DNA from: Chloroflexota bacterium
GTDB lineage: Bacteria; Chloroflexota; UBA11872
DNA length: 39,691 bases
Direction: 5' to 3'
Assembly: GCA_028874315.1 (NCBI GenBank)
Contig: JAPPKM010000054.1
Coordinates: 1-39,691 of the forward strand
Made by a program: the position numbers and the translations under genes. Below, in pieces: positions 7,795 to 13,729 of this stretch (the stretch's first letter is position 1; every line of letters begins with the position of its first letter). Below the pieces are notes generated by a model. That model did no database searches. It had not been told where the DNA came from and was given only the letters and a program-made list of their open reading frames with translations.

Positions 7795-10767
7795 CTAGCC
7801 GGCCGGCGTGCGCACGATGTGCGCAGGAACGTCCTGCACGGCGCGCTCGGCCCAGAAGGGGTCGGCGGTGAAGAGAAAGACCTGCCGGTCGCCGGGCATG
7901 TCGGCCAGCGCCGCCAGGCCGCTGGTGGTTCGACCCGGATCCCAGTTGACGAACATCTCGTCCAGGAACAACGGCAGCGACTCGTCGCCTTCGACCAGGT
8001 CGACCATGGCCAGCCGAAGCGCGAAGTAGATCTGCTGAATCGTGCCGCGGCTCAGCGGCGTATCCACATCCTGCGGAAAGTCCTCGCCAGTCCGGCGGAC
8101 TTGAAGCTTCACGTCTCCCGACGCGGCGTCATCGACCGTTAGCAGGTCATAGCGTCCACCTGTGAAGTGCCGCAGGTGGCCGCCAGCAGCTTGAAGGAGC
8201 GGCGCCTGGTAGCGCTCGCGATACGAGTGTTCGGCCATCAGCACCACCTGACGGAGCAGAGCGAGACGGTCGTGTTCGCGGCGAACAACGGCCAATTGCT
8301 CCTCGGCAGCCTGAATCGCGCCCATGATGTGGGCGGGTCCAGGCTCGGTGCTCAATCTGTCGCGCTCCGTGGTCAGTTGGCCTTTCTCTGCGGCCAGATC
8401 CTGGCCCGCCGAACGCAGTTCTTCCGCTTGAAGGCGGTATTGAACGCGATCTTCGTCGCTGAGACCAACGGATTCCCCCGCGGCGGCTAGCTCTTCAGCC
8501 TCGGAAACACGCCCACGCCATCCCGGTGACTCGCGTTCCAGATCGGCCAGGACCCGATTCGCCTCGGCCCGTGATTCCCGAGCTTCGAGGAACCTCTTGA
8601 GCCCCGACAACGCTTCGCTTCCATCGGGATCGAGCGCAGTCAACGACGCATCAATTCGCTCGAGTTCGAGCACGGCAGCATCGCGTTCTTGATTGCACGC
8701 TTCGAGCTGTTGGCGTCGTTCAGTGAGTTCCGCGGCGGCTTCGAACGCAGCTCGCTCGGATTCCAATGCCTCATCCAGCGCGCGCCGGGCAGCCGGCGCC
8801 GCTTCAAACGGATCGGCCGGCAATTCGACTTCGAGTGTCAGACGCAGGCGTTCGACTTCGTCTCGCCAAGCTGCCAGCCGCGCCGCTACCTCATCTCGAT
8901 TTCGCCTGATGCGGCGCGTGTCCTGGATCGACTGGCGCATTTCTTCAAGATCGCGGACCAGTCCATCCGAAGGGTTCTCACGGCTGATCGGCGCAACCGG
9001 GACATTGGCGATGACATAGAGAAATTCGGCGCGGGCCGCGTGGTAGGCGGCCTCTGCGGTGCGGGCCACTTCACGGGCCGCCGTCTCGGCCTCGTTCGCC
9101 CGCACCAAACCCTCGGCGTCCAACTCCCGCCTGAGGGCAGCGTCGCGTGCGCTCTGAGTACGATTAATCTCGGCCGGGATGTCAACGTCTGGGTCAAGCC
9201 CAACCACTTGGAGTCGGGCTTCCCAGTCGATGCGCGGCGCCGCGCGTATGGGACGCCTCGACCACCCGAGAGCAACAGCGGCGACCAGGGCTGCCGCTCC
9301 CACGATGGCAAGGCTCGTGCCGACCACGCCACCGATTCCGAAGCCAAGGCCGAGCAGCACGACTCCAACAAGACCGATGGCAGCCAGCAAGGCGGTCGGC
9401 AGGGTGCGAGCCGGCGGGGGACGCTCGGCGCCTAGCCGGCGCGCGGCGTCGATCTCGCGCAGGGTCCGCAGGCGCTCATCAAGTTCGCCCCTGCCTGGGA
9501 TTGTGTCGAAAGCGGCAAGCGACTCTTCCAAACGCACACGGACCGACTCGGCTGAGCGCACGTCGTCCAACGCTGCGTCAAGCTTGCGACGCTCGTCGCT
9601 TGAGGCCGTGAGCCGTCCACGCATCTCGGCGACCGATAGGCTGAGAAGGGCGTCGCTTGTCTCAGCTTCGACACGTTCGGAGACAAGTGCACGGACGGCG
9701 ACTTCGCGCAACGCACCGTCGCGGCGTTGCAACTCGGCGTTCATGCTGTCAATTCGGTCCTGATCGGCATGGGCGAGCGCAAGCTCGCGATCCTGGTGTT
9801 CGATGGTGTCGCGGGCGTCCAGCAGCCGACGGGCCGAATCCTCGATTTCACTCGCATGCTCGAGTGATTCGATCTCCTGCAGGTACGAACTCTTCGCCTT
9901 AGCAAGCTCTTCGAGTCTCGCTTCGAGGTCAGCGCGCCGTTTCGGAGTGTCGTCGGGCAGGACCCCATCCGGTGACAAGCCATCGGCCTGAACCCGTAAG
10001 CGGTCCATGCGTTCCACGCGTCCGACCAGAGGCGCCAGCGTGGCGTCGCGCTCCAGGGACAGCTCGATGCGTTGAAGCTTGCGCGTGTTGTCTGCGAGTG
10101 CGGCTGCAATGCCCCGTAGGCGCTCGTCGGCCGCTTCGATCTGCGCGCGGCGCTGGGCGGCTTCGCGCAGACCGTCCCGCAAGCCCCTGATCTGGGCGGC
10201 AATCTCGCGGGCCTCGGGCCGGCCGCGGCGGTCGGGTCGCCAGAGCCGTCGGCGCTCGGTGTCAAGTGCGCTTACAACGGCACGCGACGGACGCAGAAAG
10301 TCGTAGGAACTGCCGCCCAAAACTCGATCCTGGACGTGTTGCCATGCCCGGGCGTCGAGGCCGAGCGCTTCCTCCTGGGTCAAGGCATAGACATTCTTGA
10401 AGACATCGCGGGTCATTAGGCCAACCGCGGGGATCGGCCTGTTGGCCAGGCGTGCCTCACGCTGCGAGTGAATCAGGCGGCCCTCAGGTCTGGAGGTGAG
10501 CCGACGAGCGACGCGAACCTGATCGCCGTCGCTCAGCTCCACGTCAAGTCGACCGTCAAGGTAGCGGCCGTCCCAGGGCCGATAGGGATGCGCCTCAGCG
10601 GTGGCGGGCGAGAATCCAAACAGGGCGCTGGCAAAGAACTCGAACAAGGCGCTCTTGCCAGACTCGTTGGGCCCTAGCACCACAACCACGCCGGCGTGGG
10701 CCAGACCCGACACGGTCCAATGATCGATGGGCCCGAAGGCATCAATGGACCAGCCGTCGATTCTCAC
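7795..10767 (-). CDS. yhaN: YhaN-type AAA ATPase (Rad50/SbcC-like) with internal membrane hairpin
   Basis: 990 residues. The N-terminal half of a bipartite ABC-type ATPase has Walker A GPNESGKS at residues 32-39; the C-terminal half has the signature LSRGTIQQIYFALRLA (near 900) and Walker B LFLDEMFVNWD (near 930). Long Glu/Arg-rich coiled-coil arms lie between. Near residues 457-503 two adjacent hydrophobic segments, rich in Leu, Val, Gly and Ala, would form a membrane hairpin at the apex of the coiled coil, where Rad50 has its zinc hook. 'LSRGT' with 'DEMFVNWD' is typical of YhaN rather than SbcC. GTG start overlaps the stop of the upstream phosphoesterase gene by four bases (GTGA), consistent with an ATPase/nuclease complex in DNA end processing. 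Confidence 0.85.
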   Translation of the reverse strand: MRIDGWSIDAFGPIDHWTVSGLAHAGVVVVLGPNESGKSALFEFFASALFGFSPATAEAHPYRPWDGRYLDGRLDVELSDGDQVRVARRLTSRPEGRLIHSQREARLANRPIPAVGLMTRDVFKNVYALTQEEALGLDARAWQHVQDRVLGGSSYDFLRPSRAVVSALDTERRRLWRPDRRGRPEAREIAAQIRGLRDGLREAAQRRAQIEAADERLRGIAAALADNTRKLQRIELSLERDATLAPLVGRVERMDRLRVQADGLSPDGVLPDDTPKRRADLEARLEELAKAKSSYLQEIESLEHASEIEDSARRLLDARDTIEHQDRELALAHADQDRIDSMNAELQRRDGALREVAVRALVSERVEAETSDALLSLSVAEMRGRLTASSDERRKLDAALDDVRSAESVRVRLEESLAAFDTIPGRGELDERLRTLREIDAARRLGAERPPPARTLPTALLAAIGLVGVVLLGLGFGIGGVVGTSLAIVGAAALVAAVALGWSRRPIRAAPRIDWEARLQVVGLDPDVDIPAEINRTQSARDAALRRELDAEGLVRANEAETAAREVARTAEAAYHAARAEFLYVIANVPVAPISRENPSDGLVRDLEEMRQSIQDTRRIRRNRDEVAARLAAWRDEVERLRLTLEVELPADPFEAAPAARRALDEALESERAAFEAAAELTERRQQLEACNQERDAAVLELERIDASLTALDPDGSEALSGLKRFLEARESRAEANRVLADLERESPGWRGRVSEAEELAAAGESVGLSDEDRVQYRLQAEELRSAGQDLAAEKGQLTTERDRLSTEPGPAHIMGAIQAAEEQLAVVRREHDRLALLRQVVLMAEHSYRERYQAPLLQAAGGHLRHFTGGRYDLLTVDDAASGDVKLQVRRTGEDFPQDVDTPLSRGTIQQIYFALRLAMVDLVEGDESLPLFLDEMFVNWDPGRTTSGLAALADMPGDRQVFLFTADPFWAERAVQDVPAHIVRTPAG

Positions 10768-12026
10768 GCGGAGTCGTTCCGCAAGAGACGTTCCGCCGCA
10801 GCCGCGTCGAGACCGCTGAGAAGCCCGCGAAGGTACGTCAAGCGTTCGTTTTGTTCGACGTGATCGTCGCCAAGGGCCAATTCCGAGGGGGCCAGCCGGG
10901 ACAGAAGTCTGTCGTCGTGACCTGCCTTCTGAATCAGGTCCAAAGCCTCGCCGAGCACGTGTCGCTGGCCAGCATGGCGGCTCAGGTCAATCGGTGGAGA
11001 AAGCCCCACATCGCGAACGTCGACATCCAGCGCACCTAGCGATTCGCACAGATACTCGGCGAGGCCATCGCGTTCCTCACGGCTGCGCAGCACGGCCGCC
11101 AATGGGCACGGACCCGAGAGTTCCACGCGCAGGATCCAATCCTGGCCAGACTGAACGCTTCCACCCGCCTCTTGCAGGCCTTCGAACGCCGCTCGAGCTG
11201 CGGCTTGGACGTCAACGATGGCATGGGCCGCGCTCAGATCCATAACCGTCAGTCGTTCCCAACGCACCTGTGCGAGTGGGTGAAAGCGAACCTGCGGTGG
11301 CTCGGGCGGACTGAGGTCAACCACCAGGGCGCCTTTGGCACCCGTTTCGCCGAAGTCACGGCCCTGCAGGTTGCCCGGGTACCAGGCGGGCGAGTCCTCG
11401 CGTAGACGCTGCCGCTTGTGGATGTGTCCCAGCGCCCAGTAGTCGTAGCCGGTGTCGAGATCGGCCAGGGCGGCGGGTGCGTAGACGTTGCCTGCTTCGT
11501 CGTCCGCAGCCCCCTGCGCACCACCGACGTCGGCGTGAAGAAGCGCTACGGCAGGACCAGGGCCGGGGGGCGGCGGGAATGCGGAGGCCAAGTTTGTCGA
11601 TTCGTGGGTTGTCTGGTGCCCGGCAGCCACGACCCATCCGATGCGTTCGCCACCGCGATTGATCGCGACCTTTCGGGGTGTCCGGGAACTGTGCAGGTGA
11701 AAGTTGGTTGACGGCCAGGCGATTTGGCTGGCGCGATAGTTGGCTCGCCCTGGGTCGTGGTTGCCGGTGGCGTAGACCACGGTGACGCCTCGGTCGGTCA
11801 GTCGCCGCAGCTCACGTGTCAACACCCGTTCCGTGGCGATGGTCAGCCATTCGTTGTCGAAAAGGTCGCCGGCGATCAGGAGGGCGTCGGCTCTCTCCTC
11901 GAGCGTCAGGTCCACCAGGGCGCTGAATGCCTCGCGGCCCGCCTGCTGAAGCTTCTGTCGCAGATCCGCGTCGTGTCGTCGAAACGGCGTGTCGAGGTGG
12001 ACGTCAGCGGCGTGGACGAAGCGCAC
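10764..12026 (-). CDS. yhaO: YhaO-type metallophosphoesterase (Mre11/SbcD-like DNA exonuclease)
   Basis: Calcineurin-like phosphoesterase of the Mre11/SbcD group. Motifs in order: VHAADVHLDTPF, LLIAGDLFDNEW, VVYATGNHDPG, a later AGHQTTH and LLHADVGG, and YWALGHIHKRQ, together supplying the two-metal site; a C-terminal capping region follows (about 290-420). The frame is open from TTG at 12074, but a strong AAGGAGG (12035-12041) stands eight bases before GTG at 12026, directly ahead of VRFVHAADVHLD, so I place the start there (420 residues). It is followed with a 4-base overlap by the YhaN-type ATPase; the pair parallels Mre11-Rad50 and SbcD-SbcC. Confidence 0.88.
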   Translation of the reverse strand: MRFVHAADVHLDTPFRRHDADLRQKLQQAGREAFSALVDLTLEERADALLIAGDLFDNEWLTIATERVLTRELRRLTDRGVTVVYATGNHDPGRANYRASQIAWPSTNFHLHSSRTPRKVAINRGGERIGWVVAAGHQTTHESTNLASAFPPPPGPGPAVALLHADVGGAQGAADDEAGNVYAPAALADLDTGYDYWALGHIHKRQRLREDSPAWYPGNLQGRDFGETGAKGALVVDLSPPEPPQVRFHPLAQVRWERLTVMDLSAAHAIVDVQAAARAAFEGLQEAGGSVQSGQDWILRVELSGPCPLAAVLRSREERDGLAEYLCESLGALDVDVRDVGLSPPIDLSRHAGQRHVLGEALDLIQKAGHDDRLLSRLAPSELALGDDHVEQNERLTYLRGLLSGLDAAAAERLLRNDSA

Positions 12027-12127: not shown

Positions 12128-13729
12128 TTAGACCCCGATGGCGTAGCCGTCGCGCCGCGGGTCAGCGCCTCCCTGGAGGGCGCCGGTGACTGGGTTTCGG
12201 CTGGCGCCTTGCATGCCGCCGACGGTCATGGTCCAGGGGTCGGTTGCTTCGGCGCCGTGGCCGCGGGCGGCAAGAGCATCGATCACGCTCCGATCGACGC
12301 GCGACTCGACAAGGACCAGGGCGCCATCCATGAGCCGCATTCGTGGGGCTTCGATCGCAGCCTGCACGTCAAGCCCGAAGTCGACGTGCTGCACCAGCGC
12401 CTGCGGCTGGGTCTGGCAGATGCCGTAGCTGCCCGGGGTGCCGAGCGCCAGGACCGGTTCGCCATCGCGCAGGGAGATGGTCGGCGCAATTGGCAGGGAC
12501 AGCGGCGCGCCCGGGTAGAGATGGTTCGGGCTGAGCGGGTTCAGATCGCCCCATCGGAGGAGATCATTGGTCAGCGCGCCGTAGCCCTGCACAACAATCC
12601 CGGAGCCAAAGCCGGCTCCGAGGCTCTGGGTCAGGCAAACGGCGTTGCCTTCCGCATCCATTACCGAGAACGAGGTGGTGTGCTCGAGCATGGGGTCCGG
12701 CTGCGATCCCGGTGGCGCCGGTGCGCCGATCTGCTCGGTCGGACCGTTCAAGGCTTCCGGCGAGTCCAGCAGGCCACGCAGTCGATCAAGGTTCTCGTCG
12801 CCCAGGATTTCTTCGACGATCTCGCTAGGCGCGTTGGCGTGCCGGAAGCGTGCTCGTGACGAGAGGCGCACCGCGCGGATGATCGCGTCCAGGTGGTCAG
12901 CGCCGTTTCGCTCGAGAGCGCCGATGTCCAGATGGGAGATGAGTCCCAGGGTCATCAGCATCTGAAAGCCTTCGGAGGGCGGCGGCGCACCGTTGACCTC
13001 AAGTCCGCGGTATTCGATTTGGATCGGGTCCTGCCAACGAGCTTCCACAGCGGCCAGGTCGTCCATGGAAAGCGCGCCGCCGAGTGCCTGAATCTCGTTG
13101 ACGAGCGCCTGGCCGAGTTCGCCCTGATACAGGTAGTCCGGACCCTCGCTTACGAGGGCCTCGTAGGTCGCCGCCAGATCGTGCTGATGCAGCATCCAAC
13201 CGGCGTCAGGCTCCTTGCCGTCGTCCAGAAAGATCTCCGACCAGCCGGCGAAGACCTCAGCGATGTCATTCAGGCGGCCGCCGATCATGTGAGCGTTGCC
13301 TTCGCTGACGGGGAAACCGCCGCGCGCGAGATCAATGGCATCGGCGAAGAGTTCGGCGGTGCTGCGCGTGCCGTAGTCGTCTAGCAATTTCATCCAGCCG
13401 GCGAGGCTTGCCGGCGGGCCCACGCCGTGCGGACCGCGAGTCAGGTCGTCGTCGCGTCGTGCAATAGGATCAAAGTTGAGGGGAACGGCGGGCGTGAAGT
13501 CCAGACAGCGCGCGCGACGCTCAGCAGCCACGTAGACCATGGCCGTGCCCATGCCGGCGAGCCCGGACATATAGGGCTCGACCACATCAAGCGCGGCGGC
13601 TGTGGCCACGGCGGCGTCAAAGGCATTGCCGCCGTTGGACAGAATGCGAGCGCCCGCTTGCGCCGCGAGGGGATGCGCGGCCGCTACGACGCCGCGGCGG
13701 GAGGAAACGCTTGGCCGCCGTCCGAACAT
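12128..13729 (-). CDS. Gamma-glutamyltransferase family protein
   Basis: 533 residues of the GGT family (Ntn hydrolases that self-cleave and transfer or hydrolyse gamma-glutamyl groups, e.g. of glutathione). Opening VVAAAHPLAAQAGARILSNGGNAFDAAVA and VEPYMSGLAG match the family start. EHTTSFSVMDAEGN near residue 350 supplies the conserved Thr that becomes the N-terminal nucleophile after cleavage (TTxxSVxD). LGTPGSYGICQTQPQALVQ and the C-terminal GADPRRDGYAIGV are also family features. No signal peptide is visible, whereas many GGTs are periplasmic. The TPGSYG segment stands where E. coli GGT has PGGS, so substrate preference may differ. Start ATG with AAGGAG about 10 bases upstream. Confidence 0.88.
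   Translation of the reverse strand: MFGRRPSVSSRRGVVAAAHPLAAQAGARILSNGGNAFDAAVATAAALDVVEPYMSGLAGMGTAMVYVAAERRARCLDFTPAVPLNFDPIARRDDDLTRGPHGVGPPASLAGWMKLLDDYGTRSTAELFADAIDLARGGFPVSEGNAHMIGGRLNDIAEVFAGWSEIFLDDGKEPDAGWMLHQHDLAATYEALVSEGPDYLYQGELGQALVNEIQALGGALSMDDLAAVEARWQDPIQIEYRGLEVNGAPPPSEGFQMLMTLGLISHLDIGALERNGADHLDAIIRAVRLSSRARFRHANAPSEIVEEILGDENLDRLRGLLDSPEALNGPTEQIGAPAPPGSQPDPMLEHTTSFSVMDAEGNAVCLTQSLGAGFGSGIVVQGYGALTNDLLRWGDLNPLSPNHLYPGAPLSLPIAPTISLRDGEPVLALGTPGSYGICQTQPQALVQHVDFGLDVQAAIEAPRMRLMDGALVLVESRVDRSVIDALAARGHGAEATDPWTMTVGGMQGASRNPVTGALQGGADPRRDGYAIGV

What the first reader, a model, noticed from the sequence alone, without database searches (positions are those of the whole stretch)
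7795..12026. YhaO-YhaN pair with a membrane hairpin at the tip of the coiled coil
Where Rad50/SbcC have a zinc hook or hinge, this 990-residue ATPase has two adjacent hydrophobic segments (about residues 457-503). That would tether a Mre11/Rad50-like nuclease complex to the membrane, an arrangement whose purpose is not well understood. Strong coupling (GTGA overlap) supports a complex with the phosphoesterase.
Basis: partly seen in the sequence, partly recalled or inferred. Interest (0 to 1): 0.5.

Follow-up and report, generated by a model that had tools for sequence, protein, structure and literature searches.

The report
Membrane-anchored relative of Mre11-Rad50
A DNA-repair-type nuclease pair resembling Mre11-Rad50 carries, at the tip of its long coiled coil, a greasy hairpin that probably anchors it in the cell membrane; this is a trait of a known but little-studied bacterial family (YhaO-YhaN, called SbcE in Bacillus), not a feature peculiar to this genome.

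Summary
Confirmed: 7795-10767(-) encodes a 990-aa YhaN-type ATPase whose start overlaps (GTGA) a Mre11-like YhaO (10764-12026). YhaN residues 458-503 are two adjacent hydrophobic helices between the coiled-coil arms, inside a 49-residue stretch free of D/E/K/R/N/Q/H (0 of 5000 shuffles). YhaN has no cysteine hook; the genome separately encodes SbcCD, whose SbcC has two mid-protein cysteines.

It is not unique. A hairpin-less query recovered 58 Chloroflexota YhaN ORFs, 56 with the hydrophobic segment; the Bacillota and haloarchaeal YhaN examined have it too. Arm lengths on its two sides covary (r=0.98, 36 related sequences), and one congener duplicated both arms, 66 residues before and 70 after the hairpin: it is the apex.

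All 15 Pseudomonadota YhaN examined (2 truncated) lack it. Of 17 hairpin-less pairs, one lies inside a BREX operon and three beside other anti-phage genes; the window's pair sits in a conserved housekeeping neighbourhood.

Best reading: a member of the SbcE/YhaN-YhaO family, a membrane-tethered Mre11-Rad50-like DNA-end-processing complex. Membrane insertion is predicted, not shown. The family is in print; the anchored/soluble split and the BREX-embedded pair are the newer parts.

The parts
7795..10767 (-). yhaN (sbcE-like) ATPase, 990 aa, GTG start
   Evidence: ORF; Pfam AAA_27 1.6e-14 and AAA_23 2.2e-08; N34 G37 K38 S906 G908 D936 invariant in a 17-sequence alignment
10764..12026 (-). yhaO, Mre11/SbcD-type phosphoesterase, 420 aa, GTG start preceded by AAGGAGG; GTGA overlap with yhaN
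   Evidence: Metallophos 4.3e-12; phmmer to Mre11 chains of the PDB 4e-14; D8 H10 D54 N89 H90 H164 H201 H203 invariant in 14 sequences, window included; model matches Mre11/SbcD chains, TM about 0.5; junction and ribosome site
9259..9396 (-). hydrophobic hairpin, residues 458-503 (helices 459-478 and 481-502)
9427..10215 (-). N-terminal coiled-coil arm, residues about 185-447 (helical with short breaks)
   Evidence: AlphaFold2 helices, block pLDDT about 58-95
8164..9180 (-). C-terminal coiled-coil arm, residues about 530-868 (helical with short breaks)
   Evidence: AlphaFold2 helices, block pLDDT about 63-95
10651..10674 (-). Walker A, GPNESGKS, residues 32-39
   Evidence: sequence; G32 N34 E35 G37 K38 S39 invariant in 16 sequences
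8041..8055 (-). ABC signature LSRGT, residues 905-909
   Evidence: sequence; invariant in 16 sequences
7957..7977 (-). Walker B LPLFLDE, residues 931-937
   Evidence: sequence; L931 P932 F934 D936 E937 invariant in 16 sequences

Best explanation
The pair is the Chloroflexota member of the YhaO-YhaN (SbcE) family: two YhaN ATPase heads with a YhaO nuclease dimer form a Mre11-Rad50-like clamp for DNA ends, and the fold-back point of each YhaN coiled coil is a two-helix membrane hairpin instead of a zinc hook or hinge. Each protomer would thus be fixed in the cytoplasmic membrane by its tip, both arms in the cytoplasm, with the heads reaching up to about 39 nm inward (263 residues x 0.15 nm, inferred). 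Two hairpins of one dimer could pack as a four-helix bundle and close the ring as a hook does (inferred). Its likely job is housekeeping processing of broken or incoming DNA near the membrane, beside the soluble SbcCD. Shown here: gene pair, motifs, YhaO fold, hairpin, its place at the apex, its conservation. Inferred: insertion in the membrane, complex, nuclease activity, role.
For: Hairpin beyond chance and predicted as two helices of 20 and 22 residues between low-confidence linkers. Conserved: with the window protein as query, 38 of the 39 matching Chloroflexota genomes whose stretch I read (35, 3 of the other 4); with a hairpin-less query, 58 ORFs of at least 400 aa, 56 with a segment of KD 2.02 or more, 55 of these at relative position 0.43-0.58 and one in an ORF broken upstream. 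Also Enterococcus, Listeria, Monoglobus, Vescimonas, Lachnospira (E.) eligens and Natrinema. Apex: N-arm (Walker A to hairpin) and C-arm (hairpin to signature) lengths correlate, r=0.98 for 36 sequences; congener G023 has 118 extra residues after residue 391 and 134 after residue 573, i.e. 66 before and 70 after the hairpin; the first insert is 39% identical over 114 residues to the arm segment just before it, the second 54% over 127 to the segment just after it. No cysteine hook: one Cys in YhaN (691), whereas SbcC of the same genome has Cys 479 and 486 and no hydrophobic segment. YhaO: Mre11-type motifs and fold. Housekeeping: same neighbours TruB-RibF-CRP-GGT-YhaO-YhaN in the 7 genus stretches compared with the window; SbcC in 13 of 13 genus genomes, ComEC family in 12 of 13. 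Literature passages: yhaONM with higher transcription after peroxide and listed under lexA/SOS in B. pumilus; [quoted passage not shown] YhaN in a Staphylococcus haemolyticus surface-shaving table, labelled Membrane.
Against: No dedicated topology program, localisation or assay could be run; my hydropathy is Kyte-Doolittle plus an octanol scale written from memory, by which helix 2 is only mildly favourable (1.8 against 6.1 for helix 1). Net charge is positive on the C flank in 29 of 41 but not consistently on the N flank (19 positive, 14 negative), so the positive-inside rule helps on one side only. AlphaFold2 gave pTM 0.35 from 16 close sequences and poor confidence in the ATPase head. In 10 of 35 ORFs only one segment passes 1.6; the longest run without any D/E/K/R has a median of only 31 residues over 58 ORFs (46 if one charge is allowed), and about 21-23 in L036, so some relatives may have a shallow or re-entrant loop. 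The function comes from one Bacillus paper of which I saw only the title in reference lists (not held).
Confidence: 0.72

Rival explanations
1. The hydrophobic hairpin is a soluble dimerisation module: the tips of two or more YhaN molecules stick together through these helices, as a hinge or hook does, without entering the membrane.
For: It occupies the place of the hook/hinge; glycine- and alanine-rich helices could pack tightly; in many relatives a charge interrupts the block (median run without charge 31); purified SbcE was reported as a soluble protein seen by microscopy (recalled, not seen here).
Against: 46 consecutive residues without charge in the window protein would be exposed in a monomer; hydrophobicity is kept but the residues hardly: in the 8-sequence alignment of genus and sister genus only G468, G479, A487, G490 and A497 of 46 are invariant, unlike a specific protein interface.
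Confidence: 0.17
2. The pair is an anti-phage or anti-plasmid defence system that waits at the membrane for injected DNA ends.
For: Hairpin-less relatives lie inside BREX or beside Gabija and DUF4297 anti-phage genes; YhaN scores weakly against the defence ATPases LmuB and mad3.
Against: YhaO and the upstream GGT gene have no PADLOC match (only these and YhaN were scanned in the window); the locus is kept in one housekeeping neighbourhood in the genus, and the pair persists without those neighbours in the sister genus; the SOS listing in Bacillus fits repair.
Confidence: 0.12
3. YhaN acts at the cell surface, as an adhesin or transporter-like protein.
For: A review reports YhaN of Bacillus velezensis as an adhesin and putative ABC transporter (passage); surface-shaving table.
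Against: In the model only 2 residues separate the helices, leaving hardly anything outside to adhere or be shaved; the pairing with a Mre11-type partner and Rad50-type motifs points to DNA.
Confidence: 0.03

Closest known systems
SbcE/YhaN with YhaO of Bacillus subtilis and relatives (yhaO-yhaN-yhaM cluster)
   Same: AAA_27 ATPase with long coiled coil, upstream Mre11-type YhaO; the Enterococcus copy, in the order YlbF-YhaO-YhaN-HD protein, has the hydrophobic segment
   Different: No HD-domain gene directly beside the window pair; SOS control not tested; the B. subtilis protein itself was not compared here
SbcCD / Mre11-Rad50
   Same: Mre11 fold and motifs in YhaO; Walker A, signature, Walker B and long helical arms in YhaN
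   Different: Hydrophobic hairpin instead of cysteines; the genome has a separate SbcCD
Pseudomonadota 'YhaN family protein' pairs on plasmids (about 1150 aa)
   Same: YhaO-YhaN gene order, AAA_27
   Different: No hairpin in 15 of 15 examined, 2 of them truncated; some in mobile or defence neighbourhoods
Lamassu LmuB, MADS mad3
   Same: Weak profile matches to the ATPase
   Different: Partner is a Mre11-type protein; no defence gene recognised next to the pair in the window

Membership tests
SbcE/YhaN-YhaO | N-terminal AAA_27 with Walker A | tested here: met
   54.5 bits against cut-off 22
SbcE/YhaN-YhaO | C-terminal signature and Walker B | tested here: met
   LSRGT, LPLFLDE kept in 16 sequences
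SbcE/YhaN-YhaO | YhaO-type phosphoesterase directly upstream | tested here: met
   54 of 58 relatives have an adjacent YhaO; a 4-base overlap is possible in 23 of those 54
SbcE/YhaN-YhaO | hydrophobic hairpin at the coiled-coil apex (anchored branch) | tested here: met
SbcE/YhaN-YhaO | LexA/SOS control | not tested
   reported for Bacillus pumilus; no Chloroflexota LexA motif was searched
SbcE/YhaN-YhaO | function in double-strand-break repair | not testable with these tools
   needs genetics
Rad50/SbcC | cysteine (zinc) hook at the apex | tested here: not met
   only Cys691 in YhaN
Rad50/SbcC | curated Rad50 profile score | tested here: not met
   26.9 bits against cut-off 700
Mre11/SbcD (YhaO) | fold and metal-ligand motifs (ligand identity recalled) | tested here: met
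Mre11/SbcD (YhaO) | curated SbcD profile score | tested here: not met
   51.6 bits against cut-off 77.65
anti-phage defence system | defence profile match or defence neighbours | tested here: not met
   only weak ATPase matches for YhaN; none for YhaO and GGT; Pfam of the neighbours shows housekeeping genes
membrane protein | experimental membrane insertion | not testable with these tools
   only hydropathy and helix prediction

The most novel reading that the evidence does not exclude
Membrane-tethered Mre11-Rad50-like complexes are an ancient, widespread housekeeping class (Chloroflexota, Bacillota, haloarchaea), and a single loss of the anchor went together with spread on plasmids and recruitment into defence loci, including a YhaO-YhaN pair built into a BREX operon as a nuclease arm.
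Probability: 0.3. Interest if true: 0.72.

Novelty: new member of a known kind. Interest (0 to 1): 0.46.

Why it matters
Mre11-Rad50 is usually pictured as a free complex whose hook or hinge joins two molecules or closes a ring. If YhaN is anchored by its apex, a whole branch of this machinery works from the membrane, which would bear on how ends of incoming or broken DNA are handled there and on why Bacillus SbcE matters for competence. The natural pairing of anchored and soluble relatives gives a direct test: exchange the tips and ask whether location or activity changes.

Tried and rejected
Considered and rejected: (1) chance hydrophobicity in an Ala/Leu/Val-rich protein: rejected by the pair and run tests and by conservation. 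(2) A feature peculiar to this genome: rejected. (3) Ascertainment by a hairpin-bearing query: tested with a hairpin-less query. Not counted there: one 204-aa fragment (L143_4926); 34 of the 92 stretches given to one search yielded no ORF at E 1e-3; of the 54 newly fetched stretches 45 yielded an ORF of at least 400 aa, 44 with the hairpin; a few partial matches (for instance G040, G335, G398) were not fetched. In one search, two partial matches (G107, G044) were not fetched. In one search, 36 of 57 distinct rows were used; 21 were skipped for a missing motif, for lack of a hairpin or as fragments. The named relatives were picked by hand from listings (108, 89 and 235 plasmid records), so 15 of 15 is not a census; the two truncated ones may end before the apex. 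(4) Defence system: see rivals. (5) Solved structures: only Rad50 heads matched YhaN by sequence, weakly; Foldseek of the YhaN model gave SMC-type coiled coils with poor TM-scores, of little use.

Led nowhere: genome scan with a 17-member alignment; reading the SbcE paper (not held); literature on membrane-bound Rad50 (nothing relevant in the listings). Whether the membrane nature of YhaN's tip is in print: searches showed no paper saying so in what I read (listings, and passages), but listings were capped (for instance 40 of 109), the key paper could not be opened, and I recall (no call) that UniProt predicts transmembrane helices in B. subtilis YhaN.

Full report
Observation. The window is contig C40 of a 206-contig, 3.34-Mb genome. 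Of 17 related loci from named genomes, 16 bear Chloroflexi/Chloroflexota titles. The 990-aa ORF 7795-10767(-) and the phosphoesterase ORF overlap by GTGA; the phosphoesterase most likely starts at GTG 12026 behind AAGGAGG. Residues 458-503 carry no charge; Kyte-Doolittle maxima are 2.57 (460-478) and 2.28 (481-499). Against 5000 shuffles the adjacent pair and the 49-residue run without D/E/K/R/N/Q/H are never reached; a single window of 2.57 is reached by 22 of 5000. Ten other proteins of the window, YhaO included, reach 0.95-1.64.

What it is. Pfam AAA_27 and AAA_23 at the N terminus, Walker A GPNESGKS, signature LSRGT and Walker B LPLFLDE kept in 16 sequences make it a Rad50/SMC-like ATPase of the YhaN kind; its Rad50 and RecF profile scores are far below the curated cut-offs. 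The partner matches Mre11 structures by sequence, its AlphaFold2 model (mean pLDDT 73.8) matches Mre11 and SbcD chains at TM about 0.5, and D8, H10, D54, N89, H90, H164, H201 and H203 are invariant in 14 sequences (that these are the metal-site motifs is recalled). The genome has a separate SbcD-SbcC pair, with SbcC in 13 of 13 genus genomes; that SbcC has two cysteines, 479 and 486, and no hydrophobic segment, while YhaN has a single cysteine at 691.

The hairpin is a family trait. With the window protein, 41 of 201 Chloroflexota genomes matched. Of the 39 whose stretch I read, 35 gave a YhaN ORF by phmmer and all 35 have at least one segment of KD 1.6 or more, 25 of them two; of the other four, three have the hairpin and one (L049) does not. 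With the hairpin-less L049 protein as query, 84 of 400 genomes matched; 58 ORFs of at least 400 aa were recovered from 92 stretches, 56 with a segment of KD 2.02 or more, two without (L049 and L129). In 55 of the 56 the segment lies at relative position 0.43-0.58; the exception is an ORF broken upstream. Named relatives, picked by hand: 7 of 7 rows from Bacillota (two of them Listeria sequences from phage-labelled records) and Natrinema have it (2.01-3.11); 15 of 15 Pseudomonadota rows, two of them truncated, do not (1.08-1.57). The Enterococcus pair lies in the order YlbF-YhaO-YhaN-HD/OB-fold protein, which I take as the Bacillus yhaONM arrangement (cluster name seen).

It is the apex. Across 36 sequences the N-arm and C-arm lengths run from 235/174 to 540/540 residues and correlate at r=0.98 (the sequences are related, so the p-value is not to be taken at face value). 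In congener G023 the protein is 1240 aa; 118 extra residues follow residue 391 and 134 follow residue 573 of the window protein, 66 before and 70 after the hairpin. The first insert is 39% identical over 114 residues to the arm segment directly before it, the second 54% over 127 residues to the segment directly after it, so both look like tandem duplications. Both arms grew by similar lengths at matching points, as an antiparallel coiled coil with the hairpin at its fold-back requires. AlphaFold2 gives helical arms 185-447 and 530-868, linkers 448-456 and 503-512 below 50, and helices 459-478 and 481-502.

Against my reading. The head is modelled poorly; helix 2 is only mildly favourable on the octanol scale, which I wrote from memory; flank charges obey the positive-inside rule on the C side only (29 of 41 positive; N side 19 positive, 14 negative). 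Some relatives have one clear segment (10 of 35); the median charge-free run over 58 ORFs is 31 residues, 46 if one charge is allowed, so the depth of insertion may vary. No experiment here shows a membrane location.

Two branches. A YhaO tree of 47 rows groups the 7 Pseudomonadota rows with Chloroflexota L049 (94/88) inside a set otherwise of hairpin-bearing partners; rooted by the single, very long SbcD branch this suggests an ancestral hairpin and one loss, but the inner fork is weak (86/47), long branches abound and L129 was not in the tree. L049's pair lies inside BREX: BrxA, BrxB, BrxC, PglX, YhaO, YhaN, PglZ, BrxL. Sphingobium cloacae pSCLO_4 has MmeI, YhaO, YhaN, two ORFs matching GajA, and GajB; Phaeobacter pP66_b has a GajB match before the pair; Yoonia pSMR4r-1 has a DUF4297 anti-phage-associated gene. 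That is 4 of the 17 hairpin-less pairs looked at; several others have ordinary neighbours (Ruegeria, Rhizobium rosettiformans, Aureimonas, Microvirga), and the neighbours of L129 gave no PADLOC match apart from weak methyltransferase hits. So defence linkage occurs but is not general. A 2026 BREX survey (PMC12839542, word search of its main text only) holds none of the words calcineurin, SbcC, SbcD or YhaN; one search found no paper, and the 12 of 54 papers listed showed none on such a pair by title or abstract start.

Context and function. In the 7 genus stretches compared with the window, the pair keeps the order TruB-RibF-CRP-GGT-YhaO-YhaN, facing the M42 peptidase and, where the contig reaches, EF-G; the one exception at the far end is a contig edge. 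In the sister genus the pair is kept but none of the other ten query genes was found nearby. This argues for a housekeeping role. Literature as seen: title of the SbcE paper in reference lists; SOS listing and higher transcription of yhaO and yhaN in Bacillus pumilus (passages); SsbA interaction (passage); YabT interaction (passage); surface shaving (table row); adhesin claim in a review (passage). I recall, without a call, that SbcE was seen as foci in competent cells and by atomic force microscopy.

Verdict. A real, well-conserved and probably membrane-inserted apex hairpin in a known family. The pair itself is a new member of a known kind; the split between anchored and soluble branches, the symmetric arm growth, and the BREX-embedded soluble pair are the parts a specialist may not know.

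Noticed in passing
L049:37-12527 with L107:12270-17023: A hairpin-less YhaO-YhaN pair lies between PglX and PglZ of a BREX operon (BrxA-BrxB-BrxC-PglX-YhaO-YhaN-PglZ-BrxL) in a Chloroflexota genome.
   Followed up: partly
L075:1733-10419 and L088:1-5270: Hairpin-less YhaO-YhaN pairs on conjugative alphaproteobacterial plasmids stand next to Gabija genes (GajA matches in two adjacent ORFs and GajB in L075; GajB in L088).
   Followed up: partly
L186:1764-9408; L185:4700-11287: Plasmid YhaO-YhaN beside a DUF4297 anti-phage-associated gene (Yoonia), and a 671-aa YhaN beside TniQ/TniB/Mu-type transposon genes (Roseibium).
   Followed up: no
L034:7502-11224: YhaN of 1240 aa in a congener: both coiled-coil arms lengthened by 118 and 134 residues that resemble the adjoining arm segments, 66 and 70 residues from the hairpin.
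   Followed up: partly
L083, L084: Records labelled Listeria phage (OR846780, OR846761) carry YhaN-type genes of bacterial kind and look like host chromosome in phage assemblies.
   Followed up: no
L099:26-4759: A contig titled Bryobacterales bears a YhaO-YhaN pair 61% and 54% identical to the window's, behind a GGT gene as in the Chloroflexota genus; probably a binning error.
   Followed up: no
L129:3335-8232; L130:3255-5732: One genome (G353) carries both a hairpin-less YhaN (1169 aa) and a hairpin-bearing one (825 aa).
   Followed up: partly
window 12128-13729: Gamma-glutamyltransferase gene 101 bases upstream of yhaO on the same strand, next to it in the genus stretches compared, may share its transcript.
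   Followed up: no
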